Source: Macrocystis pyrifera (taxonomy: Eukaryota; Sar; Phaeophyceae; Laminariales; Laminariaceae). From it: a stretch of DNA of 64,000 nt. Location of the stretch: assembly GCA_031763025.1 (NCBI GenBank), contig JASSKH010000003.1:4206718-4270717 (forward strand). The letters run 5' to 3'. Under the pieces are notes generated by a model. The model saw only the letters and a list, made by a program, of their open reading frames with translations. It was not told where the DNA came from and did no database searches. Of this stretch, positions 1,164-64,000 are shown one piece after another. Both the position numbers and the translations under genes were made by a program. The number at the start of each line of letters is the position of its first letter. Positions within the stretch are counted from its first letter, which is position 1.

Positions 1164-1966
1164 ATTGATCGGCACGGCGTAATACTTGCAGCGAAGCAGA
1201 AAGCATGCAGACCAGCGATGCTGCCTAGACAAAACACGCAGATATATCGGGCGTATCCACAACCTCACTACTCTGCGTGGTTCGTGTTATATTTTCGTTT
1301 TCGAAGACGATGCGAAGCGTTTCGCAACATTCAAAAACTCGAAAGTGACAGACACACGTAAACCGGCATCCTTCAACACATGCGTAGCAAAACACCGACC
1401 GCTGCTGTATGTCCGCCCAAACGCTGAAGAAGGTACTACCTGGTATTAAATGCATTTAATTTGTCATCCCCAGTGCGCAACGCGAGCGTGAGTCAAATTA
1501 AATTTTTATTATATCATGTACCTCGTATAAAGTAAATAGGAACGAGGATACCTGTAACTCGAAATACGAAGGTACGTGTCAACAAATTTAATTCGTGTAC
1601 GGCGACAACGTACGTAACTACAAGTCCCTATCAGTGAACCTGAAAGAAACAAAAAAGTTTGGGGATAATCGCGCTCCTCGATAACACCAACTCTAATTGA
1701 CCCGTGTTTTTTTCACTATAATAGGTGCCTAAACACATTGGACATCGTTTGTAGAGAGTATATGGGGAAAACAGTACTTATTTAATGAGGGCCACAAATC
1801 CTATTTTCTTACTGGGAAAAAAACTTTAATTTCCTATACGAATTGAATGAAACATGGTAATTTAAGTGGAATCCATCAACAGGGCGCTCTTTGTATATAT
1901 TAGCAAGAGACACGAGACGTCTTGTTCTTTCGCAAACACCGAATATTAATGGAGTAGTTGCGTTTT
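1164..1966. other. AT-rich intergenic stretch
   Basis: No gene or repeat relative was recognised. It contains one TACCTGGTA motif at 1437-1445. Confidence 0.6.
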
Positions 1967-1973
1967 GAATGTT

Positions 1974-3993
1974 CACACCTCGGATAAGGTAACACTGGGA
2001 TAACCCTTATCTACGTTTTGGGGCCTAACACAGGAACGCGTCGTAATGTACTAACATATTGTTACCGCAAGAGGAGCGATCACGGTAACGCGGTAACACA
2101 ACAGTGTTAACTGGAAACCCACGAACGTGCACGTGCCTTAACGTTATGTTGCTGTTCGATCTCGTCTAGGTCTGGTGCAGTAACATTATGTTAGGTTATG
2201 CCGTGATGAGTCCTTGAACCAACACTGTAACACAATGTTAGGCTTTGACCAAACACGTACGATATCACTCTAACATGCCCAGCTCGATATCCGCATATTT
2301 ACTAACACGATAACATAATGTTGCTGTTGACACAGCGTTAGACATAACACACTAACATAATGTTACCCTTAGGATGAATGTTATACGTGACTCCCTGACA
2401 TAACGTTACCATGTTCGCCAGCACTACTGGCACGTAACATTGGGTTACAGATAACACACTAACGTAACATAACGCAGTGGCCAGCACTACTAACACTACG
2501 TTATCTGGACCCTCCATCTGATTGCCTTATAGGCTCGGATAACGTAACACTTAACGCGCGTTTGATACGTTACAGTCTTATCCGGCCCATACGTAACATT
2601 ATGTTAGGGTGTTAGCCTAAATGCGGAAGTCTCTGTAACATTATGTTACGGTGTTACTGTCAGTAAAGATCTGATGGTGACATTCCGTTACCGTGTTACC
2701 ATAGAGATCAATCTGGGTCTAACAATATGTTACTGAGTTACCGTTGGGGCCGAAGTAGTTTTAACGTAATGTTACTACGTTACCCTTTGGATCTTCTCGA
2801 GATCTAGCATGGGTTACCTGTGTCACCTGTGTTGGTGGTAAAGCGGCGTGTGGGAGCAACATAATGTAGCCTTTTTATTCAATTTCGCCGACATCCCAGT
2901 AGGGGATACCCACAAAATATCCCCGGGGGGATAATAGTATGACATCCTCGGTAAAAAAACGCCACCACATTTTAAAACCCCACAACAGGGGAAATTTAGG
3001 AAGGATTCCCGCAAAAAAGCGTCATTTTTTTAGGAAACCTCGCCAGTACGTTATCCATATATTAACACAGTACATTATCCATCTATAACGTAATCTGCAC
3101 ACTCGCACGTACGAGTTAACACGGCAGTAACATATTGTTGATGTTAGATTGGGTGTGTATGTTATCTGCTAACTTGTGTCACTACATACATTGCGTACGA
3201 ACTAACACATTAACATAATGCTAGTGTTTTATCCATCATATTAGACGTTATTCGTTTGACGTACGTTATGGTAGCAAGACTTACGTAACACCCTCACATA
3301 ACGTCGCTCGATACGGACTGATGCTGACACGGTAACATGATATCGATGCTAACGTTGTATTGACCATACACTTAACCCCTCTACTGTGTTTTACGATAGC
3401 CAGTAGGAATTTTCACTAACATCCTAAAATAGTGTTATGTACGCGCTTATTCGACCGTGTACGTTATCCGTCTAACTGATGTTACGGTTGCAAGTAAGAA
3501 TCCCGTTGACACACAAACATAACGTTACTCGCTACGGGCTGATGTCGCTAACACGGTAACATAATGTGAACGTTTAATTGACCATGTGCGTTATCCCTTT
3601 AACGTGAGTTACGATAGCCACTAGGAATTCCGCTAACACCCTAACATAGTGATACTCGCTATGAGTTGCATACCCTAACACCGTAACACATATACTGCGG
3701 CCAGTACGGGATCAAGGTAACACTCCAGCATAATGTTACGCGATTGCCCGCCGATACCGTAACACACTAACACTATGTTATCTCCATATCCAGAAAATAG
3801 TCAACGTATTACGGGGGTACATAGTTAACGGGACCAAATTTTGTTAGTAAAAATAGGTAAATATATAGGTTTTTATGTATACCATAGGTCCTATTAACTA
3901 TGGACCCCCGTAATAGTAACGCGATGTTACGGGTGTTTTCGCTGACGCCAAACATTAACATAAAACGTTAAGTATTACGTTATCCGAGGTGTG
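1974..3993. mobile_element. 2-kb TIR element, copy 1, with target-site duplication
   Basis: The ends are inverted copies of CACACCTCGGATAA (1974-1987, and the complement of 3980-3993). They are flanked by GAATGTTC at 1967-1974 and again at 3994-4001, a 7- or 8-bp target duplication. No ORF of note lies inside, so it is non-autonomous. The body is full of TAACATWATGTTA palindromes. A second copy lies at 11981-14019, and a 105-bp MITE has inserted at 3809-3913. The superfamily is unknown; an 8-bp duplication would fit hAT-like elements. Confidence 0.85.
3809..3913. mobile_element. 105-bp MITE inside 2-kb TIR element copy 1
   Basis: Full-length family B copy between TA dinucleotides at 3807-3808 and 3914-3915. 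It interrupts the 2-kb element at a site that is uninterrupted in copy 2. Confidence 0.92.
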
Positions 3994-4407
3994 GAATGTT
4001 CGGACAGTCCTCACTAAAAACTAGTGATACACCAAATTTTCTGACACTTTCAAAACGGAACTGCTCCGTGAATATTCAGCGTTTCCGAAAAAAAAAACGT
4101 CCTTGTTCCTACTGCTGATACCAAGAGAGGGCCCCGTTGATAGATTCCATGTACCATGCTTCAATTCGAATTTGACCAATTTTTCTGTACCAATTTCGCG
4201 ATATTTTTTTCCCTACGGGACTAACAGGCCTCTGGCCCTCACTCAACTGATAAGATTTTCCCAAGCGCTATTTCAGTATCACAGATGGCTCACGCAGTCG
4301 GGCACCTACTCTAAAAAATCGCGGGTCAACTAGAGTTGGTGTCATCGAGAAAAACGGTTTTCCATAAACGAAAAAATATAGATCAGGTTCCCTGACAGGG
4401 ACTACTA

Positions 4408-4514: not shown

Positions 4515-4604
4515 TAGACTAAATATATGGGTATTCACGCTACCACTGCGAAGGTCTCCGTGCATACGAGCAGTTTGACGACAGGTACCATCCAGGAGAA
4601 CATA

Positions 4605-4709: not shown

Positions 4710-4969
4710 TAATAACACATTGAACGAACGAATAACCTCCCCCGGACTCTCGCCTCCCCCCGTCCCCCCCACTTCTTGTATACCAAGTATGGTATACCTG
4801 GTACATATTTACTGCACGGTGGGTTAGCACCGGCCGCCAGCGACGCTGCAATATACGCCAATCGCTGCGTGAGGTAGGCAACAAAAATCCGTTTTTTTTT
4901 CGTTCTGACGGTGACCATGAGTGGTGGCCGAGTTACGTCATCTTGTGCACGGTGTGGAACCTTAATCCC

Positions 4970-9631: not shown

Positions 9632-9736
9632 TTACGGGGGTCCATAGTTAATAGGACCTATGGTATACATAAAAACCTATATTTTTACCTATTTTTACTA
9701 ACAAAATTTGGTCCCATTAACTATGGACCCCCGTAA
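9632..9736. mobile_element. family B MITE, reverse orientation, in the tandem array
   Basis: 105 bp with perfect GTCC-type ends and TA on both sides. Its internal sequence is inverted relative to the copies at 3809 and 8186. It interrupts a second unit of the 8.0-10.55 kb array. Confidence 0.92.
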
Positions 9737-11980: not shown

Positions 11981-14019
11981 CGCACCTCGGATATATTAGC
12001 ACTGGGATAACACTTATCTACGTTATGGGACTTAACACAGGAACACGGTAACGTACTCAGAAAGTGTTAGTACTGGAGGAGCGAGCACGGTAACGCGGTA
12101 GCACAGTGGTAACTGGAGACCCACGAACGAACGTGCACACGCCTCAACGTCATATTGCTGCTCGATCTCGTCCAGCTCTGATACTACAGTAACTGTTTGT
12201 TATGCCGTGGTCAGTCCTTGAACTAACGCTGCAACACATTGTTAGGTTTTGACCAACCACGTACGTTATCACTCTAACTTGCCCTTATCGACATCCGCAT
12301 ATTTACAAACACGATAACATATTGCTACTGTCGACGCAGCATTAAACATAACACTAACTTAGTGTTACCCTCAGGAAGAGTGTTATACATAACACCCTAA
12401 CTATCATAACGTTGCTATGTTCGCCAGCACTGCTAACACATACCAGGTAACATTGTGTTACAAATAACACAATATATAGTCTACAGGTAACGTATCATAC
12501 CGCAGTGGCCAGCACTACTAACACTTAGTTATCTGGACCCCCCATCTGATTGTTTTCGGCTCGGATAACGTAACACTTAACGTACGTTGGATACGTTACA
12601 GTCTTAGCCGACCCATACGTAACATTATATTAGGATGTAAGCCTAAATGCCGAGGTATCTGTAACACTATGTAACGGTGTTACCATCAGTAAAGATCTGA
12701 TGATGGTAACGTTCCGTTACCGTGTTACAATAAAAATCAATCCGGGTCTAACATTGTGTTACTGATTACCATTGGAGCCGACGTCGTTCTAACGTAGTGT
12801 TACTATTACGGGGGTCCATAGTTAACAGGACCTATGGTGTACATAAAAACCTATATATTTTCCTATTTTTACTACCAAAATTTGGTCCCGTTAACTATGG
12901 ACCCCCGTAATACGTTACCCTTTGGATCTTCCCGATATCTAACATGTGTTACCTGCGTTAGTTAGTGGTAAAGCGGCTTGGCGAAGTAACATAACGTAGC
13001 CGTGATTCCGCCGACATCCCAGTAGGGGATACCTACAACAATATCCTGGGGGGGGGGGATATCACGGCATCCCCGGTAAAAAATGTTTCCATTTTTAAAA
13101 CCGCAAAACAGGGGATGTTTGGGAGGGATCCCAGCCAAAAGAACGCATCATGTTATTCTGGAAACCCCGCCAGTACGTTATCCATCTATAACACAGTACG
13201 CTATCCATCTACAACGTATCCTGCTCACTCGCACATACGAGCTAACTTGTCGTTGATGGCAGTAACATAGCGTTGATATTAGATTGAGAGTGTACGTTAT
13301 CTGCTAACTTGTGCCACTACATACATTGCATACGAGCTCACACACAAACAAATGCTATTAATAGTGTTTTTTCGATATTATACGCTATCCGTTTGACATA
13401 TGTTATGGTAGCAAGGCTTCCGTTGACACCCTCACATAACGTCGCCCGATACGGACTGCTGTTGCGGCTGATACGGTAACATAATGTTAGCGTTGTCTTG
13501 ACCGTATGTACGTCATCCCTCTAACGTGAGTTACGATAGCCCCTAGGAATTTCACTAACACACTAACATAGTGCTATATAGTCGTTTATTTGGCCGTGTA
13601 CGTTATCCGTCTAAAGGGGGTTACGGTAGCACGGAAGAATCCCGCTGACACACCAACATAACGTTACTCGCTACGGGCTGATATCGCTAACACGGTAGCA
13701 TAATGTTAACATTAAATTGACCAAGTACGTTATCCCTTCAACGTGCGTTACGCTAGCCATAAGGATTTCCTCTAACACGCTAACATTGCGTTACTCGTTA
13801 TGGGCTGCATACCCTAACACCGCAACACATATACTGCGGTCAGTGCGGGATCAAGGTAACACTCTGTCATCATGCTACGCGATCGCCCGCCAATATCATA
13901 TCACACCGACACTATGCTATCACAAAATACAGAAAGTAGTTAACGTAGTAACGTCACGTTACGTTTTTTTTTTTTCGCTGACGCCTAACCTTCACATAAA
14001 ACACGCTATCCAAGGTGTG
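11981..14019. mobile_element. 2-kb TIR element, copy 2
   Basis: This copy aligns along its length with the element at 1974-3993 in the same orientation. The left end is CGCACCTCGGATA and the right end is the complement of CACACCTTGGATAGC. The flanking duplication is no longer clear (GAAAAT on the left, GAAATAAT on the right). A MITE is inserted at 12806-12910, at a different place from the MITE in copy 1, so the two MITE insertions came after duplication of the host element. A TACCAGGTA insertion at 12441-12449 is absent from copy 1. Confidence 0.85.
12806..12910. mobile_element. family B MITE inside 2-kb TIR element copy 2
   Basis: 105 bp with GTCC-type ends and TA on both sides. It splits the motif GTTACTACGTTAC that is intact at the matching place in copy 1 (near 2775). 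Confidence 0.92.
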
Positions 14020-14290: not shown

Positions 14291-14707
14291 GCTTATTGTC
14301 ACAGCTTTCACTGCAAATGCGCGGTTTTAGTGTGATGTCTAATTTGGTATGAAAATGTGGCCGCAGCGATGTATGCGTGAAAGGTGTACACAACGTACCT
14401 GGTATGGTATGTAATTGCGGCTCTATACTACTACGTGTGATACTGTGCGATGTTTACTTTTCTTCGTGTTGCACGTGCGGCACGAAACCATGTCCTCGTA
14501 CATCGTGATATGTCCCGGATTCGCCGTTTCGTCTCCCCTACTTCAGAAAATAAATAATCTCCCCTCCCCCCCCCCCCCTTGCTCAGTTTTTTCCCTCGTT
14601 TTACGACCCACCCTACAATACACCAGCAATGCAGAAACAAAGAACACGGCACACAGCAGCAAGTCTCGTAGAACCACTTTCCGTGCATATTGTCGTCTCT
14701 TTCACTA

Positions 14708-25786: not shown

Positions 25787-27204
25787 CCCATGATTACAGC
25801 AACCGCCACTGCCTCGTTGAGAGGGAGAGGATACAATGGTTGCTGTCGCCCAGGTTAAAATGAAGGAGGAACCGTACTGCACGGACTCACGAGCAACATG
25901 ATCCCACCCGTACTGCGTCTACTCAGGCAGCGGGTGACACCAAATGTAGCATGGTGTGGGCGCAGGACACGATCCCGCCCGCACTGGGGAGGCGCTCACG
26001 CCCCTCCTCCTACTTGGGCGGCGTTTTGATAACACTAAATTAACCAACCATTGTCTTGGTCGTTATCTCGGAGTTCCCAAAAGGGATTAATACCACGTAT
26101 ACATATACGTGCACACATACATATATTTGCTGAATTTCAGATCGCTGGTCGTGTTATGCCTGCCGTTTCATTGGGCTGTGTAGACCGTAAAACTGTGTCA
26201 GCAGCTGGTGGGCCGTTTCGTTTTCTCGCTCGGCTTGCACAAACAAAAAGTCATCGGATTTTTACACTTGCGGCACCCCTTTTACCCCCAAAAAGTCCGA
26301 AGGCCTCCGAAGGGGAACCTTGTATACTAATATATACCTGGTATACATCAACTACAAAAAACAATATACCGGTGGTTTTCACAAAGCGCCTTCGCGCGTA
26401 CCGCCTTTCCCGTCCCCAAGCCACCCCTGCCCTGCCCGAAACCGGTCAAGGCTTGCCCGAACCAAAAAGCGCGATGGGGGAGGTCAGGAGGGGGGGTGGG
26501 GGAGGGTACCCATTGTCATGCATGGCGGTAGTCCTATGACCATCGACCCCATTAACAGCATCCCTACATCGCCGGGACAGGGGAGTTTTTCACCAACCCG
26601 GCAGGCCATACTTGCACCAAGCTTCGCGAAGCGCCGTGAGGTGCTGGGCGAGTCACATGACGGGCGAGCTTGCATCCTACTCAGAACCGCTTCTGAGGCG
26701 GATTTCGGCACCTCGTGCGTCCTTTCTTGCATATGGATGACCGCGTCCAACTAATGGATAGGGGGGTTAACAGCTACGAGCTCCCAAAAGAGCGCGCGCG
26801 GGGGGGGGGGGGGGGGGGGAGGGACACACACACCCCGTGACCCATCCGCCAACGCCTCTTGCCGGTTTCGAGGAGGGTCCACAAAAAAGGCAATTATACA
26901 AGGTAAAAGCATCCGCCAAAAAGATAATCATCAACTTTCAGGGAGATCGACGAAACCAGACTTCACACGGCCCAAACCATCCCCGCTACATGACGGGCGG
27001 CCTCTGAACTTTGAAACCCACCAACACTCCACCAAAAAAAATGGCATACTCACCGGCTTTGAGGAAAGCCGACATCACAGTCACCGTGGCGGCCATGCCG
27101 GTGGAGACGCAGCACGCCCCCGCCGCCCCCTCCAAACCCGCCACCTTTGCTTCCAGCGCGGAAACCGTGGGGTTGGCTGTGCGCGAGTACGAAAACCCCT
27201 TGTC
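17963..27204 (-). CDS. PLP-dependent Cys/Met metabolism enzyme (cystathionine gamma-synthase/lyase or methionine gamma-lyase type), 7 exons, N-terminus missing
   Basis: Trans-sulfuration family enzyme acting on cystathionine, homoserine esters or methionine through pyridoxal phosphate. Exons in coding order are 27204-27054, 24999-24800, 24010-23900, 22822-22704, 21007-20896, 19899-19655 and 18065-17963 (TGA). All have GT/AG borders, and the phases fit at every junction, giving 346 residues in hand. Seen in order: SYSRTANPTV (residues 5-14, tetramer and phosphate contact), CSYGGTNR, FSETPANPTL, HVCDSTFATP (Asp133, expected to hold the pyridine nitrogen), SLTKFYDGHN (Lys158, expected Schiff-base lysine), SPQAAFYILQHSKT, VRYPGLASFPQ, CPAVMTHA and a C-terminal GITDGFVRVSCGVEDTEDL. 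The family is usually 380-420 residues, so about 40-60 N-terminal residues are missing; no convincing upstream exon was found before 34 kb. Introns are 0.8-2.1 kb and full of simple repeats. The exact substrate cannot be decided from sequence alone. Confidence 0.93.
18085..18560. repeat. GGGATGGGTAC minisatellite in the enzyme's last intron
   Basis: Dozens of imperfect 9-11-bp units of GATGGGTACG and GGGATGGGTA fill the intron just upstream of the last exon (18065). Read on the minus strand it gives a meaningless 274-codon His/Pro/Ser frame. Confidence 0.85.
20538..20554. repeat. poly-G run in enzyme intron
   Basis: 17 G on the plus strand in the intron between exons 5 and 6, so poly-C in the transcript. 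Confidence 0.9.
21092..21130 (+). repeat. (CAG)13 microsatellite in enzyme intron
   Basis: Thirteen uninterrupted CAG/AGC triplets lie about 85 bp upstream of exon 5 on the coding strand, where they read as CTG. Confidence 0.9.
22924..23028. mobile_element. family B MITE in enzyme intron
   Basis: 105-bp GACC-type copy in the intron before exon 4 of the PLP enzyme gene. The left end is worn (CCACAGGGGAACATAG), while the right end is TA-flanked. Confidence 0.85.
23475..23582 (+). repeat. AGC/GGC microsatellite in enzyme intron
   Basis: Interrupted AGC, GGC and AGA triplets cover more than 100 bp. They create false Ala- or Ser/Gly-rich open frames on both strands. Confidence 0.85.
24536..24776. 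repeat. 240-bp C-rich tract (G-rich on the coding strand) at an intron start
   Basis: Almost pure C with a few T on the plus strand. In the pre-mRNA of the minus-strand enzyme gene it is G-rich and begins about 25 bp after the exon 2 donor at 24799, giving strong G-quadruplex potential. Confidence 0.85.
25002..25025. repeat. A run at a 3' splice site (T run on plus strand)
   Basis: About 23 T on the plus strand, so the coding strand reads a long A run followed by CAG at the acceptor of enzyme exon 2 (24999). The usual pyrimidine tract is absent. Confidence 0.85.
25640..25785. repeat. three long A runs in enzyme intron 1
   Basis: Runs of about 17, 21 and 28 A lie at 25644-25660, 25721-25741 and 25756-25783, within the 2-kb first sequenced intron of the enzyme gene. 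Confidence 0.85.
26510..26745 (-). repeat. dispersed repeat C, partial reverse copy in enzyme intron 1
   Basis: CATGCATGGCGGTAGTCCTA, ACATCGCCGGGACAGGGGAG and CCAACCCGGCAGGCCATACT are the complement of the 5' part-to-end of repeat C as seen at 5180-5325. It lies between exons 1 and 2 of the PLP enzyme gene. Confidence 0.6.
26800..26820. repeat. poly-G run in enzyme intron 1
   Basis: About 20 G on the plus strand, preceded by GCGCGCGC. Confidence 0.9.
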
Positions 27205-30238: not shown

Positions 30239-30399
30239 TAGCACAGAGTAGTACCAGCTACTCTGTACCAGGTATGATACTGTATGAGCACCAAGTTGAC
30301 TGCACCATAGCCATCAGCCAACATCTACAGTAGTAGATATACCACGAAGCGCAGAACGCACGAGTACCATTACTACTATTAATAGTACTTCCCCTGCTA

Positions 30400-30506
30400 T
30401 TATGGGGGGGTCCATAGTAAATAGGACCAAATATTGTTAAAAAAAATAGGGAAATACATAAGTTTTTGTGTGTATCGTAGGTCCTATTAACTATGGTCCC
30501 CCGTAA
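30400..30506. mobile_element. family B MITE
   Basis: 107 bp with an extra G run at the left end, TA-flanked. It is separated from the next copy only by TACTAGTA. Confidence 0.9.
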
Positions 30507-30514
30507 TACTAGTA

Positions 30515-30621
30515 CTACTGGGGACCATATAGTAAATAGGACCGAACATTGTTAGTAAAAATAGGTAAATATATAGGTTTTTGTCTTTAGCGTAGGTTCT
30601 ATTTACTATAGTCCCCCGTAA
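30515..30621. mobile_element. family B MITE
   Basis: 107-bp GACC-type copy with a 2-bp insertion in the left end (CCATATAGTAAATAGG). It lies 8 bp from the preceding copy. Confidence 0.87.
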
Positions 30622-30960
30622 TACTATACCACTGCTGTGTACGACAATTATTATTAATAATAGTATGACATGACACAGAGAGCTTGCAAAAATGATGAGT
30701 TTCGACGAAATCCTCCATCTCACAGAACATCTTTGGTTTTAAATCTTGCAAAAACCCGTAAAGCCAGCGACAATGATATCGCATTATTCCCGGTAGATAT
30801 TGGTGCTATTGGTGCATGCATGTTGATACCGCACATACTGGAGATGAAATGCCGGGGCCCAGGAACTCGCAAGGCCGAGGAACAGTACTGGTTTCCCTTC
30901 ACTGCCAGTTGCCCGCTATAGATAGTGCCTGTAGAATCGCTTCGGACAGATGGGATTAAC

Positions 30961-34190: not shown

Positions 34191-34424
34191 TGAATGGTCC
34201 AACCCGGAACCCTATTTCTTTTTTCCAGGAAACACAGTTGGCTCAATTGCCGCAGCTGTAATGTTAAATTGAAGCTCCACCCTCTGGTGTCGACTGCTTG
34301 GCGAGTACTCTTGCTGCTGCTTCTTCTCCTGCTCTTGCCGTCGTCGGTGGTTCTGATTCCCAGATTGCTGGGTCTGCACAGCGGTGCAACAGCAGAAGCG
34401 GCCGAAAACGGACCACAGCCGAGG

Positions 34425-37400
34425 ATGACGGAAACTTTGCGCCAATTCAGAGCGCACCAGGTAGCCACTGGCACGGCAGTACGGGAAGGCGTGACGAAGT
34501 TCGTGCTTCAAGAATACGTCGGCGTCCCGACCGGGCAGGAGTCAGGCTCGGGCTCGGAGAGCAGCAGCTCATCATCGTCGTGGCGGACGTTGAGCTTCGA
34601 GGATGTCACCGGGCTGTGGCGCAGCAGTCCGACGTTCGCCGAGATGTTCGCGGCGTCGATAGCAGCGGTTCCCTCGGAGGCTTTATTTTGGGAGTCTGCC
34701 CCCGTTACAAGAACTACCATGGTGAGGGAAGAGCACGGTCTTGTCGCTGAAAAGCGGAAGTTGGCCAAAATCGATGAAACTCGACGAATGTTAATGCTGC
34801 ACCATACCCGGGTATGTATGCGCGATCAGAATTAAGAAGGGGTGCTACCTGTTCGTCTTCTCGGGTACCGGACGGGATTACCCGTACGGGTACTACCCGC
34901 CACCGAGTCCGAGCCCGACCCATAACCCGCCGGGTATTTCGGGCCGGGTACCCGGGTATCCGGTTAGCAACGTCCCCTGGATGAGTAAGCCTTATAATAC
35001 CTCCAGAAACCCCCTCCTCTGTCGCTGCCAGAACTCGTCGGGGTCCATGCCAATTTTGGGGGGTGCAATAGTGTGTCTTGTCGACAGTTCTTCTTTTCAG
35101 ATATTATTAATAGTATGGGATGAAAGAGTGGAAGCACCTCCACGCAGGTGCTTCCGCCCCGTCGGCGAAAACCGCCCCAGAGTATTGATATAATATTGTG
35201 CATATCATGTACTCTGCGTTAGTTTCTCCGACGATAAAGAACTATGTCATATCTATTCTCGTACCAGGTATATACATGTTCGTGTGAGATATCTCCTGAT
35301 TACCTGAACAAATTTCGTATCGTATTCCAATATCATGATAATTTGCGTCCGTGGGGTGGGCGGGCGGAGTCTCAATTCTTCTTCTTGCTTCTTTCTTGCC
35401 TCTAAGTAGAAGCAAGGCTTGCTGAGTGATCTTGTCAGAGCTACAGGTTCGTCTATTATTAATAATACATTAATACGATGAGGCGGTTCTCGATACGGGG
35501 ATGGGGAATTGTTTTGGAACTATTTTCGATCTCCTTCTCCGAGGATCCGTTTGTATCTTGTCGACAGTTCTTCTCAGATAGTACATGGGATGAAAGGGTG
35601 GAAACACCTCCTTCCTGTTGTCGGTGCTACCACCCCTCCCTCACTTTCAACGGTCCTTTCGGACTTTGGATAGGTTCGTGTGATTTATTCATCAACTGTA
35701 CGGACACAGGCCTTTTGTCCCATACTTGACGTCACTTTCCTCCTCGGTGGCTAGTCGACTCCAAGTAATATCTCTACTCATGCTCTATCGTATCATATCA
35801 TAAGCTCGTTACATGCAAAACTGAAAGACGTGAAAACCTCGTATGGCTCCAAACACGGCGAGGCGGAATTTGCGGGGTGGCAGATGCAAAAAAAAAAAAA
35901 AATGATGGGGTTCACACAGATCCCCGGATCCTTCGACGGGAGGGTGCTGGGCAGACACGTGCTCCAACCCGGGCTACCGGCCGTCCCGGTCAGGAGCTAC
36001 GCCAGAGGGGGCGGAGAAGGAGCCTCGGGGCACTGCATCCCCAGTCCTGCACATGCTCCAAATCCCGCACAAGCGGGGCGGGGGTCAGGATACCAACGCG
36101 GCCGCGGCACCTTCGGTAGGAGCGGAGGGGGGGGGTAGGGGTGGCAAGCGCATGTGCGGTGTCTGCTCCCGTAAAGGTTTGCCGGCTGACCACTCGCACA
36201 GAACATGCCCCCTTACCACCTGCCACCATTCATTGCCATCAGAATGGGCATGTGAGGGCAAACTGCCCGAACCCGTAAGATGAGGGGCTCATGTGAGATT
36301 TTGAGATGGGCGTCGTGAAAGGGAGTGGATGACCGATGAAATGTGGGCGAGTAGCATTACATAGCGTAAGAGAGGGTCTGACAACACTCAGCAACAGGAA
36401 CGAAAGGCGGTAGTTCTGTTTGTAAAAACACGGAAGAAGGCGTCATCAAGGCCAGGAGCGGAAGTAGTTGTTGGTTTGACATATGTCTTCACGGGGGGCA
36501 ACAGCACAACAGGGACAAGTGGACGGCGGCGTTGGTCGCGTTTGCGGCCTAACAAATAGGAGGCAGGCAGGTTACAAAATCGGAGCGGTCTCTCCGTGAG
36601 CGGACGTGTTACCTCAGAATGATGAATCGGTTCTCGGAGAGTCTTGAATCAAGTCCACTCGTTTCTAATATGCTACTGTACGAGCATATCATACATGACC
36701 ATGATTCCACCTCCTGTTCTGTTCGCTGTACCCTATTTTCTGTTTTTATTCGCCACCCCCATATTGAGAACTCGGCTTTTTTTTTGTTCATTAGAGTGTT
36801 TGCGGAAAAATGCCTCCAGGAGTATAGTCTCCTCCGGCCGAAAAAGGTGAAATCCCTTCCCATCATCATCTTGGCGTTTTTGCGGACGAAGTAAACCAAA
36901 TCCTGCAGGCAACGCCTCCGACATTGAGGAGGGGGGTGGGGTTGTGCGGCAATGTGGCAAAACGAAGAAAATAACGAAAAGAACAAGAACAGTGTGCGAG
37001 GCAAGGGCGCCCGGAAAAAAAAAATTGAACCGTCACGGTTTTTTTTTTTCGCAAGACAGCGGGGGGGGGGGGGGGGGGGGGGGGCGTACTCGATAGGAGA
37101 GATGTACTCGATATCATGCATGGCATGGCCGTAGCAGTCGTATGACCGTAGACCCTCGCATCCCGACAGGGGGGGGGGGTTACTAGAACCAAGTGAAAAA
37201 AATGAAAATAAGGAACATTTTTTCTCTTTTCTTTTTTCATCATATTATCACAACGGTTGCAACGGTTCTCCATTCCGACTTCTCGAGGTGTGGTGTGTCG
37301 TTTTCTCTTTTCCACGGACGCCCCTGCTGTGCGAGTAGCAATGGCAGCCTGGTAACGGGTGTCGGCGGCAGAGTTGACCGCAGTGCCGCCACTGCTATCC

Positions 37401-43330: not shown

Positions 43331-44009
43331 AATAATTTTCGGCCTGATTGAAACACCTTGCACCGGTCGAAGAGAAAAAAAAATCGAACAACGGAGCTTT
43401 TCTCTCAGCCTCGTACGCCGCCCACCCGTCTCGCGACCACCTCACCACCGATTTGGTCCGGGTAAAGCTTTCCTCCTTCTCTGCCACAGTGAGCCCCGTC
43501 GCCCGCCTCGCTTGACGCCCGGTGCTCACCGTGGCCCTCGTTCGCCAGCTTGACAAAATTAGTGCTCAGGCTGCGTTGCTCTCTCTGTGAACTTTATTTT
43601 GGTCGCAAAAATAAACACCGCTTGAGTTTTATTATGCATATCATAACGATCCTTATAGACTGTACATGGTACACGCGGAGCCTCACAAGGAGGCCAGACA
43701 GAGCCCAGTCGTGCTTCCCTCGTGTCCCGAGGCACACGCGACGCTTAGCCACGAAAACAGCGACCGCGCTCCTTGCAACCCCCCCTCTACCCGCCAGCAC
43801 CCGCTGACACCCGCGACGGCGCCGGGCTCGCCCGCGGTGCCGTACTCTGAGTATACGCACGCGCACGAAACGAAATAAGATTTCTTCAGAAATATAAGCC
43901 ACGCTTGACTCGTACCTGGTATGTCGTATGAATAACGAGTACAAGAAGGCGCTTGAATTCATGAATTTGTTCGTAATTACAAGCTACGCCCGACATTGTT
44001 GCTTTTTTA

Positions 44010-50337: not shown

Positions 50338-50465
50338 TTTACAGGGAACCATAGGACCAAATATCAATATTGATACTGCCTGTAGTAAAAATAGGAAAAT
50401 ATATACCTGGTAGGTTTTTGTGTGTATCTTAGATTCTACCAGGTATTTACTATGGTCCCCCGTAA
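50338..50465. mobile_element. family B MITE carrying two CCWGG micro-insertions
   Basis: 128-bp GACC-type copy. Its extra length comes mostly from TACCTGGTA at 50404-50412 and TACCAGGTA at 50437-50445, each replacing a single TA of the family consensus (ATATATAGG and CCTATTTAC), plus a changed stretch around 50365-50390. Confidence 0.85.
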
Positions 50466-50469
50466 CACT

Positions 50470-53400
50470 GCTGTAGTCAAGGACTTGCATCGAGCGGCAT
50501 GACACTACTGCTGTACTCTGATGTACTGCTGATGCTGTTGTACGTACGTACATTACAGCAGTATGGGCTTGGGTACTCGAGTCGTAGTCGAGGTAAAAGA
50601 ATCGCCTCGTACCACAGAGTTGCAGACGATAGCGGGGCCAGATTCACGCGCAAAACAAGCATGAGTACTACTCTACAAGTAGTCAGGGCGGTGGAGGACA
50701 AGAACAACACCAACGGGGAAGGGAAGCGCAAGGACGTCAACACATCGAGATTGTCAGACCGCTGTCAGGACGTCAAGACAGTCAGGACAACTGGACTGAA
50801 TCATCATCAGACCTGTGTAATGTACCAGGTACAGAGTATACCCCAGGTAGAGTGTTCCAAGCAACACGTCAGGCGGCTGGAAACATGTTCACGATTTGAT
50901 CAAATCATGCTCAAAGGAAGAGGCATTCACTCCCACTAAACACCAACAGCCTCACCCGGTCCTATACGAAAGGCAGTATGGGATACCCGCCATAACGACT
51001 GCACGCCTGGAGACGCGTAGTTGCTCAAACAGCGGAGGACCCGCGTGGGAAAAGTGGCATTGCTTTGGAGCGCTGTATCATTGAAATTCAAGTAAAAATC
51101 AGGTCCGCAAGAGAGGTAACCTGCACGACTCACCAAGCCTCGACGATCCGCTCGACAGGACGAAGGCAGAAGAACTGTGCAGCAGTACAAGGGCAAAGGA
51201 TGCCAGGAACACCACCGATTTCATTGCCATCCGGGGCTCTTGTCGCGGCTATAACCTTGGTGGTTGATAACTGTGTGACGTACCTGTGGCACCTGCCAAG
51301 GGGTAGTCGGGAGTTCGAGTATTATGTAATAGCCATACATTGCAGGGCACACCTCTGTATGACCCCGCACAATCTACAAGACCCACGGGGTCGCTCGTAC
51401 ATACCTGGTACCTGGTATCACGCATCACGCACGGGTACAGCTGCTCCATAACCACAGACTAGCACTACGTAGAGCTTGAACGTTGAAGCCTGACCGGGTC
51501 TTCTCTCTGCTGGAGCTTCTCCTCGAGGGAACTTTTTTTAGATCGTTTCGAATATACCTGGTAACGAGTATTTTGAATCTTTATTGCAGCGTGAATTGTA
51601 TGAACAATTTCGGCGTGTTGCGCTGGATCCAGGATGCAGAAGCCGGCTTGGTGCCTTGGGATGTTGTTCGCTACTCCGCGTGGTCCAGGATATCGACTGG
51701 AGTGGTGGCGAGTCATAGGCAGTGATCCTCAATAAGGTGGAACGGCAGCTTTGTACCAAGACTACTGTAGTATACTAGAGTACAGTCAGTATAAAATACA
51801 TTGGCACGGAGATGACGCACAGCACTGCGGCTTCACGATATCAGCTCCAATGGTAGACAGACGTGGACCATGTTACAGTACATGACAATGCACCTCTCTG
51901 GTAGCCTGGGCAGGTCTGCAGTAGCCGATGTTTGTGCCGCCAACACGGTGCGCCGCCAACACGGGGCGGTGCCGTTTGCACGAAAACACATCACCGGTGT
52001 CACAAAGAGCCGCGGCAGGGATAAAATTATAGATCGGAAAAGTTTGCACTGCTCGCTGTTGTGTGACCTTGCGCGTGTCGCCCGTAGCTTTCGTCGAACT
52101 CTACTGTATCATACCAGCCGACATTGCATATGTTACGAGGAGGGGCATTTATAGTGCACGACCGGGATCGAACTCGTAAGAAGGTTTACCCCGCTGAATG
52201 ATGGGTTGTGCCTGATTCTCAATCAGTGCGTCATGTGACCAGTAAACACTACAATACCAACACCAACGCAAGATCGATAGGCGGAACGACGGGCTCGATC
52301 GACCAAGCGGCGCGCGACCGACGACATCGCAGCATGTGCGATGTGGGTGCCAAACAGGTGTTGGTCGAGCCTCTTTGACACAATAGACCAATACGGGGTG
52401 GTGTTGTGCAGCCGTCTCCCCGAAAACCGCAAGATCCTAGACAAAATGTTGTGTTTCGACACCAGGGCGGTTGGATTTAGAAATGACGCCTGGTAGCTGC
52501 CCGAACCGGCCCCCTACTATTGACAGGAAGACATTCAGCATTTGTATGGGCAGGGATTGTGTCGTCAGAATCTCCCTGTCGAAGCGTAAAGAGTTAAGAA
52601 TAAGAAATATCGAGAAAGTAACGCCTTCCTCCGCAAGCCTGTTACAGGCGGAAAAGAGCACCTGGCACTTCTAAGTGCCGCCAAAAAACGAAATAGACTC
52701 GACGCCAGACTGTACGTGCCACGTGTCCTGTCGACCTGTAGCATGCCACGTAGCCGTGCATGCTTGTCATCCGTGAACGCGTTTGTTTGTTGGGCTGTCA
52801 ATCAACCCCGCTACCCCTCTCGACAACTGAAATACTAGAAAAAATTAGGGAAACTTGGTAGCCCCCGCGAGCTCCTGGGAAATACCCAGCTCGAACTCTC
52901 AGAAACAGCAGGCGAGACACAGCAGTCGCAGGTGTCAATGCCTCGATCTTTTTCTGGCCTGACGGTCGAAGCCTTCTCCAACGAGTGCTGGTTTTCTGCT
53001 GCTTGCTGTGACTGTGTTGATATTCTGGCGCCCAACATGTGGCATTCCAGACTATCACGTGGTTTCTCCGTGATGTTCCTGTATACCAGGTATACAGTAC
53101 GTGTACACGGAGAAAAGGTTTCTGCCAGCATTGGAAGGAGTGGTATGTTTCTACTAAAATCATGCGTCTCTCTCTACCTGGCCCTGTTTGCTGTTGGGCA
53201 AGCGACGCAGGCCGACGCCTGTGCCGTATCTATGCCCCCGAGAGTACTGGTATTCGTGTTAGCGCTGATCGAGCCATCGCCGCTAAGCGAGGGCACCTTT
53301 CGCCCTCCATAATCCCCAAAAGAAATTGAGCGCGTGTCGGATGCACCCAAAACCAAAGGTCTAGAAACCGTCAACCCACCGCGATCGCTACACCGTGGGT

Positions 53401-53750: not shown

Positions 53751-53759
53751 CCACCGTTA

Positions 53760-59015: not shown

Positions 59016-61870
59016 CTATCGCCGCGGCCAAAATGTAACGGAAACTATGTTGCACTGAAAGCCCAAGAGGGTGCTCCGCGCAGTCGGTAGCGTTAGCGCA
59101 TCCTCACGAAACTGCAGCGGACAATGGTGGCTACTGTTTTTGATTTGATCGATGAAGCCTTTTGTATCGGTTAAGCTTCGGCCATTCGACCGAGAAACTG
59201 ACCTGGGTGGACAAGAGGATGTCGCCGGTGCTGTCCTTGGTGTTGATCTGCTTCATCTCCGCAACGGTCTTCCGCGCGTTCACGAACTGTTCCAGAGGAG
59301 ACACCGTGCCGATGGCTTCTGCGAGGGTTGCATCTAGAGCTTGCTTCAAGTTCACCGCCGATCTACCACCTCGTTCCCTCGCCTTAAAACCTCCTAGGGG
59401 CATTGGTGCAGTGCCATTTCCCCCACTCCCAAAATTGTTGCAGGCGGGGGAGTTAGCCACTGGTGCTATGCCCGTATCCCTAGATTCGACAGTTTTCTTG
59501 GGAGAAGTTCGAGATGTCCGACAGTCTACTTGTCTTTTCTTTCTACCTGGTACCGCCGACGACCCAGCTAACGATCCACATTTTGCGGGAGACGGCCGTC
59601 GCTCTCGCACACCCGACGTAACAGCACTTGATGGTCTAGGCGCCATTTTCTTCTGTTCGACGCTTAGAGCATTCCAGGCCGGTTTGAATTCACCTCTGTC
59701 CCGCTTGCCGCCGCTGCCGCACAGGAGACTGGTTTCAGCAGATGACGGGCGGCTGCAATACGGGGAGCCCGAGCCGTGCTCTGACACTTGTCGCTTACGG
59801 TGTCCCTCAGTGTTCGAGGAGGCCGTTCGCCGGAGCAGTCGACCCAGCGTGGTTTTTCGAAGCGAGGGTGGTGGCTGCTGGGGAGTATCAGTCCCGTGGT
59901 CAGCCTTTCCAAACAGGAATTCTACCTCCGGACCACTCAGCAAGGGGGTGAAGCTGGGAGATTCGCGATCCTCAGCGGAGGCCCGTCGGCGATCCATCGC
60001 TGTGTGGGGTCGCTGTCGGACAGGCATTTGGGCAGTACCGCGCAGTACTTCTGCTCCTCGCTTGGAAAGAGGCTTTCCCAGCCAAACGCCACCGTCGCGT
60101 GGGGCCCACCTCGGAGCGCGGGGCTGGCGTCTACGTAGATAGCTCGTTCGCCTTACGGGAATACTTGCCTGCGGAAGAAAGCGGCGATTTAGTAATGGAG
60201 GGGGGGGTGAACAGTGCGGAGTTATGCTGCTGGTGCGTCGTGCTTGTGTGAGATCCAAATATTAGAAAAGGTGCGTGCCGCGCACGGCATATTGTTTTTC
60301 TCTCGAGAACAACGCCCGAACGCTTGATCCTTCACAAATGAAAGCGGCCCCCACATATACTGAAACTGTATGTCACGTGAGCGTCGATAGCTCTTGTTCT
60401 GAGCTTTGATAGTGGGAACCGTTGCGGCCCCCGCTCGCTGGCCGCGGAAGATAAGTGTAGTCCAGGAAAATTGTCGACACACAGAGTACCTCAGCCGGAG
60501 TATCGTGTCAGCATGGGTTTCGCACAGGATTCGAGTGGGCCTTAGTTCCTTGCTATAATTCCCCCGCGGTCGCCGTTCACCGTCAACAGCTTCATATTAA
60601 GCAATACTCGTCAACAGCTACCGCGCTACAGTAAACGTTCCCATACCGCCTAGAGGAGTCAACCAGCGAGTCGAAAGACATGATAGACGCTGCAATATAC
60701 GGTGTAGGGATGTGCAAAAAAAAATATGAGGCTCCTCGCTTGGAGAGATCTCTACAGCAATACCTCACCCAAAACCTGACTTTTGATAGAACAATGGAGA
60801 TGCAAGCCCGACCAAAAGTCCTACCTGGTATATATTTATGACCAAAGCACGTATGTCACAAAGATTATGGTAAACATGACGATTTTGGGTCGTTTACAAC
60901 TCAGCTGAGGAGCCCCCGTCATTCAAAGAAAAAGATTACCTATATGTGCTAAAAAAAGGCAATAAGACATGCCCTATCGTGATACACGTCCCACCCGAAA
61001 GCACACCTACAGAACTTTTGCTGATCTCTAAAGTACGTGCCTGCGACGCGGCGCCACGTTTTCTAGTGGCATGTGATGCATCGTCCGCCCGGGCTCTCGC
61101 AGACCCTGGTGTACCGTGTCGCGTATCTCCACCCTGCTGCGCTTCCGAGGAAGCCCTTTCCTCCGCGTCCTTGGTAGCCTGCAACAGCTTCTGGCTGACC
61201 GCGCGAGCCAAATGGGAGCTGGACGCACGCGACAATCTCGAAAACTTTCCGGACGATAAACATGCGGAGGGTGCCGATTGAGGCCTAGGCCCGGCCCTCG
61301 TCCCCCGCTCTGGAGCATCTATCTTCATCCGGCTGATGTCAACCCTGCGTTGCGTTGAGCGGGACTCGTTATCTTCCGCCGCCCTCTGACTTCCGTCTGC
61401 CTCGCCGGCTCGATCCTCTTCGGGCGGTGCCTTGCTCCTCCGTGTCACAGCCGGCTCATCTCCGTCTTGGTTCGCCCCATCCCGTTGGCAGGACGGGGAG
61501 GAAGATATGTCGGCGGCTTCTAAAGCGCCGACTTTTCGTAGAGCTTCTCCGCGTTTGTTGTGGCTCCGGCTTTCTGCGCAGTCGATGCTGCCGTCGGCGG
61601 GCGCTGAGGCACGCTTGTTGTCTTCACCCGTGACAACCTCGAGCGATTCCCCGTCTACGCGCGGCTTCCCGGCCTCTAGGTCACTACCATCGGTGTCAAA
61701 ATCAGCCCGCAGTTCGGCCAGCAGGCGTACCACGTCGCTGTCGTCCACTAGGCGCCCTTCTTCTCCTTCCTCGGCCGCAGTCTCTTCGTTTGCGTGTCCG
61801 TCTGTGTCTCCCCCTGATGCGCCCCCCGGCGCCACATCCTGGTCGTCGCCTGAAGGCTCGGTATCAACGG

Positions 61871-61914
<44 letters not shown>

Positions 61915-63034
61915 CTGCTGCTACTTCGGATGTTCGCGGGCCTCTTTTTTCGAGGTGGAAGCCCGTGAGTTTCTCTGTACAGATCCTCGAAGACCTGCGA
62001 ATGTGCGTTTGGAGAACGCGCAGGGCACAGAGCCGTGGCGCAAAGGTTACCCAGCTTCCTACGGTACAGTATCGGCCCTCTCGTAAGAAACCTGGAAGCA
62101 GATTTTAGGCTAATACGATGACCTCTAGGATGACATCAGATGTTAGGCTAACATGATGACATAAAATGCTAGGCTCGCATGATATGATGGCTTTCTTAAC
62201 AATTTCCTATATAGACGGCGAGCGCCCGGGCTGCACACGTTTCTCATTTTGCACCAAGTCTAGCATGTTTATCTACTTGTAGGCAGATTTTTCTTGAAGA
62301 CTGTTTTATCGAGAGAGGGGCCGAGAGTGTTTTTGAGTAAAAACAGCAGTGTCCAACTCAAAATTACTACGTCACTCTACAGTAGGCGTAAGTGTAACGA
62401 CCGCTAGGTGCTGATATTTATATACCAGGTATACACTAACGGTTCTTACATTCCCGTGGAGACTGGTACGTACGTACTGCACTGCTTAAAGCTTGTCCCT
62501 AAACTACTGTGGGTGCTGGCCATGACGGGGCTGTACCCGGGGATGCCTAAAAATGTTGTTGGACACCACAACACATACCTGGTGCAGTTTTACTGTACAG
62601 TAGTTGAGGCTGAGGCAGCCCGAATGGTCGAACTACAAAAATGGCAGTGCACCGCGCCCATAGGAATCGTACCGTAGCCGTTGAGCGTTCCGTATCCTTT
62701 GGGGCGCGGGTGACTGCCTCAGCAACAGCATTAAACAGTCCGTTGAGTAATTCTGGCGTAACAAGCTTCACACTTGTATCCTTGGTGATACACCCAACGA
62801 TGCTGCCGCACTGCTGTATCGCACCTCGCCGATGGACAATGAACCGCGGCACTCCGAGGCGCCGCGGGCCTCCTCCGCCTCCGTCTTGGCCTGGAGAGCG
62901 GCCAACTCAGAGAAGAAAAGATCTCCCCGATCATCGTCGCCGCAACTTCGGTCGAGGACGCTGAGTCCCAGCCCTTCTTTCACCGGCGAGATGAGCATGA
63001 GTGTCTTTTCAAAGTTATCCACCATGTCCTCCAT
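59016..63034 (-). CDS. Ser/Arg/Ala-rich protein of unknown function, 4 exons, all introns phase 0
   Basis: I do not recognise this gene. Proposed exons in coding order are 63034-62825 (70 codons from ATG), 61994-61011, 60168-59203 and 59111-59016 (TAG), about 751 residues. All borders are GT/AG, and every exon is a whole number of codons. Exon 1 begins MEDMVDNFEKTLMLISPVKE and is acidic at its end. Exon 2 begins VFEDLYRETHGLPPRKKRP, then has a serine run coded by AGC repeats, an acidic part (LLAELRADFDTDGSD) and a helical end (LARAVSQKLLQATKDAEERA). Exon 3 is basic and low-complexity. Short motifs recur: RPQSAPSA, RPSSAETS and RPSSAVTS. Long open frames in GC-rich, biased sequence support coding. 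The antisense strand of exon 3 is also open for 326 codons but has no such support. The exon 2 donor and the small last exon are the weakest parts. The ATG lies directly after CAG, so an upstream exon could exist. Confidence 0.62.
61871..61920. repeat. CTG/CAG repeat inside a coding exon (serine run)
   Basis: About 14 CTG triplets on the plus strand, read as AGC serine codons in exon 2 of the unknown minus-strand gene. The run is interrupted by one TTC, then continues with CTG. Confidence 0.85.
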
Positions 63035-63039
63035 CTGGC

Positions 63040-64000
63040 CAGCAGCAGTAGGCAGCAGTAGCAGTAGCAGCAGTCGCAGTAGTATTCAATAGATGCAGAT
63101 TCTTATTGGGGCACTATCTTCAAACAACCTTGAGCATAGGTTATTATATAGGATTTAGTGCAGAGATCACCACTAAGCCGGGTTTTTTTTAACCCAATTA
63201 GCCTAGCGTTCTCCAAAAAGTGAGCAATAAGTTCTTATTGGACACTTTCTTAGTGGCGGGCCTATACTATATATAGTGTAGTTCTATTAATAGTACGGGA
63301 CCGACCATGTGCGGTACTCTTTGTAGGATAAACGGCGTCGTGTTGACGGTGGCGTGTGGCGTTGTATTTGTTTAGCACTTTGTTGGGGTGTGAAGATATA
63401 CGACAACGCAGAAGTGCTGAGTCCAGCTGTCTAAGACGTACCAGGTAGACACTACTGCTGTAGCACCACCACCACGCAGGCAGTCGTGTTTTTTTTTCTC
63501 GCGCCAAGCGACTGCCAAACATGGTTTTCTCAAGTGCGCGCATGATACAGACTGGATTCCTTCTGCAGGTGCTCGCATCTGGTATTTATACGAATATAAT
63601 TATTGTTAAAACCACAGAACGTGCAGTAATCTGGACCAGAAAAGAGGGGACGCCAGCAGGGTGGATCCCTTTTCGGGAAAGCCTCCTTGTTGTATGGGGA
63701 GACAGTGATTGCGTATCACTCCGTGAGCGATATCGCAGCTCTACAACAGCACGGCAAAGTAGAAAGAGGCTAGGAAAAAACAGAGGTTATGACGAATTCA
63801 GCGATCGCTGCAGCGGCCACCCCGCTCCCTTTTCGTCGTGTCTCTCGGCGGGTGCGTCTGGTCACAGTCGCATCGAACCTACGTTAGCTTCAAGTACATC
63901 GCAACCCATGGTAGTGAGTGGTGCACCGTATCTCAGGTGCCTGTAGTTGCTTGCTATAACAAACATAATTGTACATTGTGCCGTATCAAGCGTGGTGGGA
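63040..64000. other. window end, no gene seen
   Basis: Contains CAG/CAGTAG triplets at 63041-63085, a short inverted repeat around CCACTAAG (63170) and CTTAGTGG (63250), and one TACCAGGTA at 63439. The 141-codon plus frame at 63521-63946 is unrecognised. Confidence 0.45.

What the first reader, a model, noticed from the sequence alone, without database searches (positions are those of the whole stretch)
1437..63447. TACCWGGTA: a 9-bp near-palindrome enriched about 45-fold across the window
I count 23 exact TACCAGGTA or TACCTGGTA sites: starts 1437, 4795, 12441, 14396, 26335, 29614, 29817, 30266, 32841, 32864, 35262, 43913, 50404, 50437, 50823, 51402, 51409, 51555, 53084, 59544, 60822, 62423 and 63439. 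Equal base use predicts about 0.5 (64000 x 2 / 4^9). Nearly all lie outside exons, and many extend to TATACCWGGTATA. Where a related repeat copy exists, removing CCWGG plus one TA restores the ancestral site. The best reading is an excision scar of a TA-targeting (Tc1/mariner-like) transposon whose ends begin CCW, or a tiny mobile unit. A functional binding site or a splice-related CAG|GTA unit is the alternative.
Basis: partly seen in the sequence, partly recalled or inferred. Interest (0 to 1): 0.88.

Follow-up and report, generated by a model that had tools for sequence, protein, structure and literature searches.

The report
Genome-wide scars of hopping DNA transposons
A nine-letter word that is about fifty times too common in this genome (probably giant kelp) is most likely the scar left when small DNA transposons cut themselves out, so the genome keeps a readable record of very many past excisions.

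Summary
In detail: all 23 TACCWGGTA sites are at the stated coordinates (shuffles mean 0.44). The genome, probably Macrocystis pyrifera, holds 121,279 against 2,421 for the reversed pattern. Repeat copies without the site differ by exactly 7 bp, TA versus TA-CCWGG-TA (48 of 79 aligned copies, from 4 of 17 sites; controls 13 of 4,751). At two TAs of an abundant repeat the inserts form a repair-type spectrum: mostly CCAGG/CCTGG, with CCAG, CCGG, CCATGG and others. TA-CCAG-TA is enriched and TA-CCTG-TA is not, which points to ends 5'-CCA…TGG-3' and 3-nt overhangs: CCA+GG or CC+TGG. Candidate sources exist: short inverted-repeat elements beginning TA-CCACTCTGWCCC (1,167 ends, control 6), 83 or 152 bp long. 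That they made the scars is inferred, and no transposase was linked. TA 7 bp away on either side is preferred about 5-fold, and a scar supplies exactly that spacing; 5,620 tandem double scars exist. Scars of this kind are known from mariner/Stowaway elements; the uniformity and number are what is new.

The parts
1437..1445 (.). scar TACCTGGTA
4795..4803 (.). scar TACCTGGTA
12441..12449 (.). scar TACCAGGTA; the one aligned copy, at 2338-2521, lacks exactly 7 bp
2338..2521 (+). unscarred copy of the repeat around 12441
14396..14404 (.). scar TACCTGGTA
26335..26343 (.). scar TACCTGGTA within TATACCTGGTATA
29614..29622 (.). scar TACCTGGTA
29817..29825 (.). scar TACCTGGTA
30266..30274 (.). scar TACCAGGTA
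32841..32849 (.). scar TACCAGGTA, TA also 7 bp away on both sides
32864..32872 (.). scar TACCTGGTA
35262..35270 (.). scar TACCAGGTA
43913..43921 (.). scar TACCTGGTA
50404..50412 (.). scar TACCTGGTA in a short abundant repeat; 21 of 22 aligned copies lack exactly 7 bp
50437..50445 (.). second scar TACCAGGTA in the same repeat copy; 23 of 26 aligned copies lack exactly 7 bp
30442..30625 (+). two unscarred copies (30442-30510 and 30553-30625) of the repeat that carries the scars at 50404 and 50437
50823..50831 (.). scar TACCAGGTA
51402..51417 (.). double scar TACCTGGTACCTGGTA (starts 51402 and 51409), read as an excision at the TA of an earlier scar
   Evidence: the order of events is inferred
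51555..51563 (.). scar TACCTGGTA
53084..53092 (.). scar TACCAGGTA within TATACCAGGTATA
59544..59552 (.). scar TACCTGGTA
60822..60830 (.). scar TACCTGGTA
62423..62431 (.). scar TACCAGGTA within TATACCAGGTATA
63439..63447 (.). scar TACCAGGTA
53245..53252 (.). possible minor scar TA-CTGG-TA (C+TGG); any single copy may be chance

Best explanation
TACCWGGTA is the footprint of cut-and-paste DNA transposons that work in the mariner/Stowaway manner. The element inserts at TA and duplicates it. On excision the cut on one strand at each end lies three bases inside the element, so each flank keeps a 3-nt overhang CCA next to its TA. End joining usually keeps all of one overhang and two bases of the other. 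That gives TA-CCA+GG-TA or TA-CC+TGG-TA, which is TACCWGGTA in either orientation and a net gain of 7 bp. Less often it gives CC+GG, CCA+G or CCA+TGG. The likely sources are short non-autonomous elements (83 or 152 bp counting both TAs) with terminal inverted repeats like CCACTCTGWCCCAAAATATAAG, and perhaps a second family beginning CCAATATGTCCGGAAATATAACGAC. The target preference is TA with another TA 7 bp away on either side. A scar provides TA-N5-TA, so scars attract further insertions, and double and triple scars result. Shown: the count, the exact 7-bp insertion at four sites and in two repeat lists, the spectrum of inserts, the existence of elements with TA-CCA ends, the TA spacing. Inferred: the 3-nt overhang, end joining, and that these element families made the scars. 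Not found: the transposase.
For: Exact gain of 7 bp: of 82 sites in 341 kb held, 17 had aligned copies; 48 of 79 aligned copies differ by exactly -7, against 13 of 4,751 for 800 sampled control TAN5TA places, 296 of which had copies. Genome-wide, at two TAs of an abundant repeat, 7 bp is the commonest insert length among the first 100 listed: 34 of 100 (of 815 matches, reversed control 13) and 25 of 100 (of 788, control 0). Spectrum there: CCTGG 13, CCAGG 7, CCATGG 2, CCGG 2; and CCAGG 19, CCTGG 9, CCAG 9, CCGG 2. End model: TA-CCAG-TA 23 vs 7.4 expected, TA-CCGG-TA 24 vs 7.0 (a palindrome counted on both strands, so 12 sites), but TA-CCTG-TA 8 vs 11. Elements: the end TACCACTCTGTCCCAAAATATAAG with up to 3 mismatches occurs 3,646 times vs 0 control; TACCACTCTGWCCC with a non-G nine bases upstream 1,167 vs 6. 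Five inverted pairs with TA outside, four of 83 bp and one of 152 bp, one of them read in full (L038:1038-1120). TA at -7 in 23 of 63 and at +14 in 24 of 63 non-doubled sites, against 6.7% nearby. Doubles: 5,620 vs 0. Decay like neutral DNA: one-letter transitions 39 over 8 patterns, transversions 37 over 16, background about 2 per pattern. Literature: Stowaway and rice mariner footprints are TA plus 1-4 bp of terminal repeat plus TA (PMC1925063, passages), repaired mainly by end joining in yeast (PMC4561436, passages).
Against: No transposase was tied to the elements: DDE_3 gave 0 matches, Transposase_1 gave 0 with silent controls, and the DDE_1 genes (39 matches) are not bounded by these ends in the stretches held. 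Only 4 of 17 alignable sites have any -7 copy, two of them in one repeat copy; three have mainly -6, four mainly 0, six mixed or small differences. Link of scars to the CCACTCTG family is weak: one search asked only for seven letters (GGTCCTA) before CCA, and with thousands of such ends a few would follow GGTCCTA by chance; its reversed control had more matches (508) than the pattern (247). Among predicted minor scars, CCG is only 1.6-fold, CCA 1.2-fold and CC 0.9-fold over expectation, and CCTAGG, not predicted, is as frequent in the sample as CCATGG (one site each), with CCAAGG/CCTTGG at two sites. In the window itself CCTG/CAGG (3) outnumber CCAG/CTGG (1). Insert lengths of 1 to 4 bp are also common in the lists (40 and 36 of 100). 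In double scars A-then-T is far commoner than T-then-A (22 vs 1 of the first 50 listed), unexplained. No second strain or species was compared, and scars inside duplicated DNA are counted more than once.
Confidence: 0.87

Rival explanations
1. Excision scars as described, but made mainly by a different TA-targeting family with CCA (or CCWGG) ends that is now rare or extinct; the CCACTCTG elements share only the end.
For: The scar reports only three letters of the end; more than one family with CCA ends seems to exist; no element with TACCA ends and a good inverted repeat stood out in the contiguous sample apart from pairs inside larger palindromes or repeats; no transposase linked.
Against: The CCACTCTG family is numerous, TA-flanked and ends in CCA.
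Confidence: 0.4
2. A functional site: a protein-binding, methylation or chromatin-boundary palindrome kept by selection, like HIP1 in cyanobacteria.
For: Palindromic, sharp-edged, genome-wide. CCWGG is a known methylation context (recalled).
Against: Exact 7-bp insertion relative to copies of the same repeat, a repair-type spectrum of variants at the same TA, and one-letter variants with an excess of transitions as in unconstrained decay.
Confidence: 0.03
3. A tiny mobile unit: CCWGGTA itself moves or is copied into TA, for example by templated addition.
For: Exact unit of 7 bp and tandem doubles (5,620).
Against: Shorter and longer inserts of the predicted excision kind (CCAG, CCGG, CCATGG) at the same TA, and the presence of larger elements with TA-CCA ends.
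Confidence: 0.04
4. A splice-related CAG|GTA unit or a component of introner-like sequence.
For: The word contains CAG|GTA.
Against: Both orientations are common (31 A, 44 T at the centre); the flanks carry TA at plus and minus 7 symmetrically, not a splice consensus.
Confidence: 0.01

Closest known systems
Stowaway MITEs and rice mariner-like (Osmar) elements
   Same: TA target and duplication, short elements with terminal inverted repeats, footprints of TA plus 1-4 bp of terminal repeat plus TA, mixed repair outcomes (PMC1925063 and PMC4561436, passages). Primers on a rice Stowaway element begin tactccctccgtccc (PMC3660474, passages); the kelp end TACCACTCTGWCCC resembles it at the last five letters.
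   Different: The Stowaway consensus CTCCCTCCRT is not met. Here one pair of scars dominates and numbers 121,279.
Sleeping Beauty and Tc1-type footprints (TA-CWG-TA)
   Same: 3-nt overhang and a central A or T that can come from either end (recalled).
   Different: The overhang CCA is not self-complementary over three bases, so the common product is 5 bp, not 3. A TA-CWG-TA excess is also present (104 vs 37 expected, both orientations) and may belong to another family.
HIP1, the highly iterated palindrome of cyanobacteria
   Same: An over-represented palindrome across a genome (PMC4390886, search listing with start of abstract).
   Different: HIP1 is linked to methyltransferases in that abstract; here the word is an insertion, read as left by excision.

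Membership tests
Tc1/mariner-type TA transposons (non-autonomous) | TA target duplicated on insertion | tested here: met
   For scars: unscarred copies carry one TA, scarred copies two. For elements: the pattern searched included TA, and inverted pairs have TA on both sides; an empty site of an element was not seen.
Tc1/mariner-type TA transposons (non-autonomous) | terminal inverted repeats | tested here: met
   Five inverted pairs, four of 83 bp and one of 152 bp, found from listed positions and one stretch read in full (L038), where the right end reads CAA instead of CCA.
Tc1/mariner-type TA transposons (non-autonomous) | excision leaves a few bases of the terminal repeat between two TAs | tested here: inconclusive
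   The insert spectrum fits ends CCA…TGG, but that the bases come from these particular elements is inferred; no locus with both element and scar alleles was seen.
Tc1/mariner-type TA transposons (non-autonomous) | related DDE/D transposase in the genome with the same ends | tested here: inconclusive
   DDE_3 0 matches; Transposase_1 0 but controls silent; DDE_1 39 matches, none bounded by these ends in the stretches held.
Stowaway MITEs | 10-bp terminal repeat CTCCCTCCRT | tested here: not met
   The kelp end is CCACTCTGWCCC; consensus from PMC1925063. It works like Stowaway but is not filed as Stowaway.
HIP-type functional palindromes | maintained as a site rather than inserted as a unit | tested here: not met
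   Exact 7-bp insertion and transition-biased decay.

The most novel reading that the evidence does not exclude
In this kelp, short TA elements are cut out of the heritable genome far more often than they stay: some 120,000 uniform scars against a few thousand recognisable ends of the best candidate family. The cutting may be done by a host-kept pogo-like (DDE_1) transposase rather than by an autonomous element, as domesticated transposases do in ciliates. Because each scar makes a new preferred target (TA-N5-TA), scars breed scars.
Probability: 0.12. Interest if true: 0.9.

Novelty: new variant of a known kind. Interest (0 to 1): 0.63.

Why it matters
Excisions are often messy and hard to read afterwards; in a rice comparison only 8 of 94 putative excisions left just the clean double target site (PMC4423477, passages). 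Here a large number seem to have left one recognisable word. One genome sequence can therefore be used to count past excisions, map where the element lands, and see how breaks are repaired in the germ line. Each scar adds 7 bp, which would shift a reading frame, so this would be a large source of small insertions in kelp. The target preference that scars themselves satisfy is a simple positive feedback that can be tested.

Tried and rejected
Tried without result: an intact element with TACCWGG ends in the sample - rejected, because ends need only be CCA; intact TACCA…TGGTA elements in the stretches held - the best pairs lie inside larger palindromes, repeats or low-complexity sequence; the DDE_1 genes as source - ten of the twelve fetched share a string of 25 letters, two of these compared over 8 kb align almost throughout and one lies near a contig end, and no such ends flank them in the stretches held; scan of viral contigs for the double scar (9 stretches) - about what chance would give in so large a collection (my estimate), not followed; dependence of the central A/T on the side of the outer TA (24 vs 21 of 80 sites, doubles included) - none; clustering of the 23 sites - not significant (p 0.07 and 0.12). 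The TAGGWCCTA palindrome looked like a second scar but most copies are part of an abundant short repeat. For the expected number of double scars a rough figure under uniform use of TAs is 121,279 squared / 28.3 million, about 520 (my arithmetic; the script there printed 1,039, which counts each pair twice).

Changed on checking: I first took the four CCACTCTG ends as sitting in the scarred repeat. Only seven flanking letters were required there, and a few such would be expected by chance, so I withdrew that and lowered the main confidence from 0.90 to 0.87 and raised the 'other source' rival from 0.3 to 0.4; the small-unit rival went from 0.03 to 0.04.

Dropped before counts: one search left out the nine viral loci; one search left out the viral loci, L028-L037 and L040 as near-duplicates; one search counted only the window and L005-L024 (264 kb), the stretches not chosen for a site. 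Searches list only their first 100 or so places.
Full report
Observation. The excess survives third- and fifth-order Markov models. The window lies in a 537,376,219-base genome of 223 contigs. Size and contig number match the giant kelp assembly in PMC10498591 (537 Mb, 223 contigs, GC 50.37%; passages and table), and the window's GC is close, so I take it to be Macrocystis pyrifera; this is an inference. Genome-wide there are 121,279 TACCWGGTA against 2,421 for the reversed pattern and 7,131 TATACCWGGTATA against 5. Sites inside duplicated DNA are counted each time, so the number of events is smaller.

Anatomy. The word has hard edges: in 276 kb, 75 copies against 0 to 7 for each one-letter variant, and 1 with C or G at the centre. 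Outside the word two preferences appear: a purine before and a pyrimidine after, and TA exactly 7 bp away on each side. In 264 kb not chosen for sites, 63 of 69 copies are not part of a double; of these 23 have TA at -7 and 24 at +14, against 6.7% nearby, and 48 have a purine before and 50 a pyrimidine after. The consensus is therefore TA-N4-R-[TA-CCWGG-TA]-Y-N4-TA.

What it is: an insertion of exactly 7 bp. Aligning each site with copies of the same repeat elsewhere shows copies with TA where the site has TA-CCWGG-TA. Of 82 sites in 341 kb, 17 had usable copies, with 79 aligned copies in all: 48 lack exactly 7 bp. Among 4,751 aligned copies of 296 control TAN5TA places (of 800 sampled), 13 do. 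The -7 copies come from 4 sites (L009 9359; window 12441, 50404, 50437), the last two in one repeat copy. Of the other 13 sites, three have mainly -6, four mainly equal length, and six mixed or small differences.

Spectrum. To see more independent events I asked the whole genome for inserts at two TAs of that abundant repeat (first 100 of 815 and first 100 of 788 listed; reversed controls 13 and 0). The commonest insert length is 7 (34 and 25 of 100); lengths 1 to 4 together make 40 and 36, and length 6 makes 5 and 15. Inserts that begin with C or G and end before a TA are CCTGG 13, CCAGG 7, CCATGG 2, CCGG 2, CAG 2, CTG 2, CCAAGG 1, CCCTGG 1 and others, and CCAGG 19, CCTGG 9, CCAG 9, CCGG 2, CCAGGG 2, CTG 2 and others. 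Six entries (CCTGG followed by TG instead of TA) are the same string and may be copies of one event. A mixture of one dominant product with shorter and longer ones at a fixed TA is what end joining of staggered breaks gives, and not what a binding site or a self-copying unit gives.

End model. In 297 kb, TA-CCAG-TA (with its complement CTGG) is 23 against 7.4 expected, TA-CCGG-TA 24 against 7.0 (12 palindromic sites counted on both strands), and TA-CCTG-TA (complement CAGG) 8 against 11. If the shorter forms were later deletions from the scar, CCTG should be as common as CCAG. If the left flank brings a prefix of CCA and the right flank a suffix of TGG, then CCA+GG, CC+TGG, CC+GG, CCA+G and CCA+TGG are expected and CCTG is not. 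Not everything fits: CCG is only 1.6-fold, CCA 1.2-fold and CC 0.9-fold; CCATGG and CCTAGG were each seen at one site, CCAAGG/CCTTGG at two; in the window alone CCTG/CAGG occur 3 times and CCAG/CTGG once. CCATGG occurs 2 in 100 and CCTAGG 0 in 100. I conclude that the element most likely ends with CCA…TGG and leaves 3-nt overhangs, as mariner-type elements do (recalled).

Source. A search for GGTCCTA-CCA followed by any base but G listed about 100 of 247 matches (the reversed control had 508, so only recurrence is informative). Four run into CCACTCTGxxCC… and four into CCAATATGTCC-like ends; four more are the CCATGG footprint and one CCAAGG; a few other strings recur two or three times. Only seven flanking letters were required, so these ends need not lie in the repeat. 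The end TACCACTCTGTCCCAAAATATAAG with up to 3 mismatches occurs 3,646 times against 0 for the control, and TACCACTCTGWCCC (with a non-G nine bases upstream) 1,167 times against 6. From the listed positions and one stretch in hand, five inverted pairs have TA at both outer ends: C130:2644680-2644762, C137:1408823-1408905, C142:747630-747712 and L038:1038-1120 (83 bp each, TAs included) and C141:591050-591201 (152 bp). L038 is the only one read in full; its right end is CAA, one base off. These elements are the best candidates; that they made most scars is inferred.

Transposase. DDE_3 gave no match; Transposase_1 gave none but its controls were silent. DDE_1 (pogo-like) gave 39 matches. Ten of the twelve loci fetched share a 25-letter string; two of these compared over 8 kb align almost throughout at about 96-97%, and one lies near a contig end. 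None of the DDE_1 stretches held is bounded by the CCACTCTG ends; L038 merely contains one of the 83-bp elements. So the autonomous partner is unknown. Ectocarpus carries 17 Mariner-Tc1 families with almost 12,000 copies, mostly non-autonomous (PMC12477816, passages).

Scars on scars. TACCWGGTACCWGGTA occurs 5,620 times and its reversed pattern never. If insertions chose TAs at random about 520 would be expected (arithmetic). The excess is roughly 11-fold; the 5-fold preference for TA-N5-TA would explain much of it, and local clustering or duplication could explain the rest. In the first 50 listed, the central letters are A then T in 22, equal in 27, and T then A in 1 (counted by eye); some of these sit in contigs that look like copies of each other. 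Sites in general show no dependence of the central letter on the side of the outer TA (24 vs 21 of 80). This asymmetry is unexplained.

Age and selection. One-letter variants are enriched for transitions (39 over 8 patterns) and barely for transversions (37 over 16; background about 2 each), as expected of sequence that decays without constraint.

Known or new. Footprints of TA plus 1-4 bp of terminal repeat plus TA are described for Stowaway and rice mariner elements (PMC1925063, passages), and end joining repairs them in yeast (PMC4561436, passages). The kelp ends differ from the Stowaway consensus. Searches of the held library for the word itself (109 papers hold the letters, 20 listed), for brown algal transposons and footprints (94, 12 listed; 15, 12 listed), for CCWGG with transposon and excision (15, 10 listed), for genome-wide excision footprints (6), for kelp miniature elements (43, 8 listed) and for over-represented transposon footprints (2) listed no title on such a scar in kelp. 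I saw listings only, apart from the papers named, of which I saw passages or (PMC9587614) the abstract. The mechanism is of a known kind; the number and uniformity, and the preference for its own scars, make it a new variant.

Noticed in passing
Genome-wide sample (297 kb), TA-CWG-TA: TACAGTA/TACTGTA is 2.8-fold over a second-order expectation and appears as an insert in the same repeat: possibly footprints of a second TA family with CAG ends.
   Followed up: partly
window 3845-3913, 9632-9700, 30442-30625, 50404-50445 and elsewhere: An abundant short repeat (GGTCCTATTWACTATGG and AAAAACCTATATATTTACC, with the palindrome TAGGWCCTA, 29 copies of it in 276 kb); its nature was not worked out.
   Followed up: partly
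276-kb sample, CGTTSAACG: 461 copies of the palindrome CGTTSAACG, perhaps a satellite; not examined.
   Followed up: no
297-kb sample, TA-CTCG-TA and TA-GTCG-TA: TACTCGTA/TACGAGTA 43 vs 10 expected and TAGTCGTA/TACGACTA 26 vs 6: other possible TA footprints or parts of repeats.
   Followed up: no
L039 (C194 near its end) and L040 (C162): A repeated block of about 8 kb at 96-97% identity carrying a pogo-like DDE_1 gene; ten of twelve fetched DDE_1 loci share a string with it.
   Followed up: partly
double scars genome-wide: A-then-T doubles greatly outnumber T-then-A doubles (22 vs 1 of the first 50 listed); no mechanism found.
   Followed up: partly
window 17963-18787 (-), 34194-34835 (+): Weak Pfam matches in window ORFs: Cys/Met metabolism PLP enzyme (E 3e-6, just under the cut-off) and DUF6940 (E 5e-7).
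   Followed up: no
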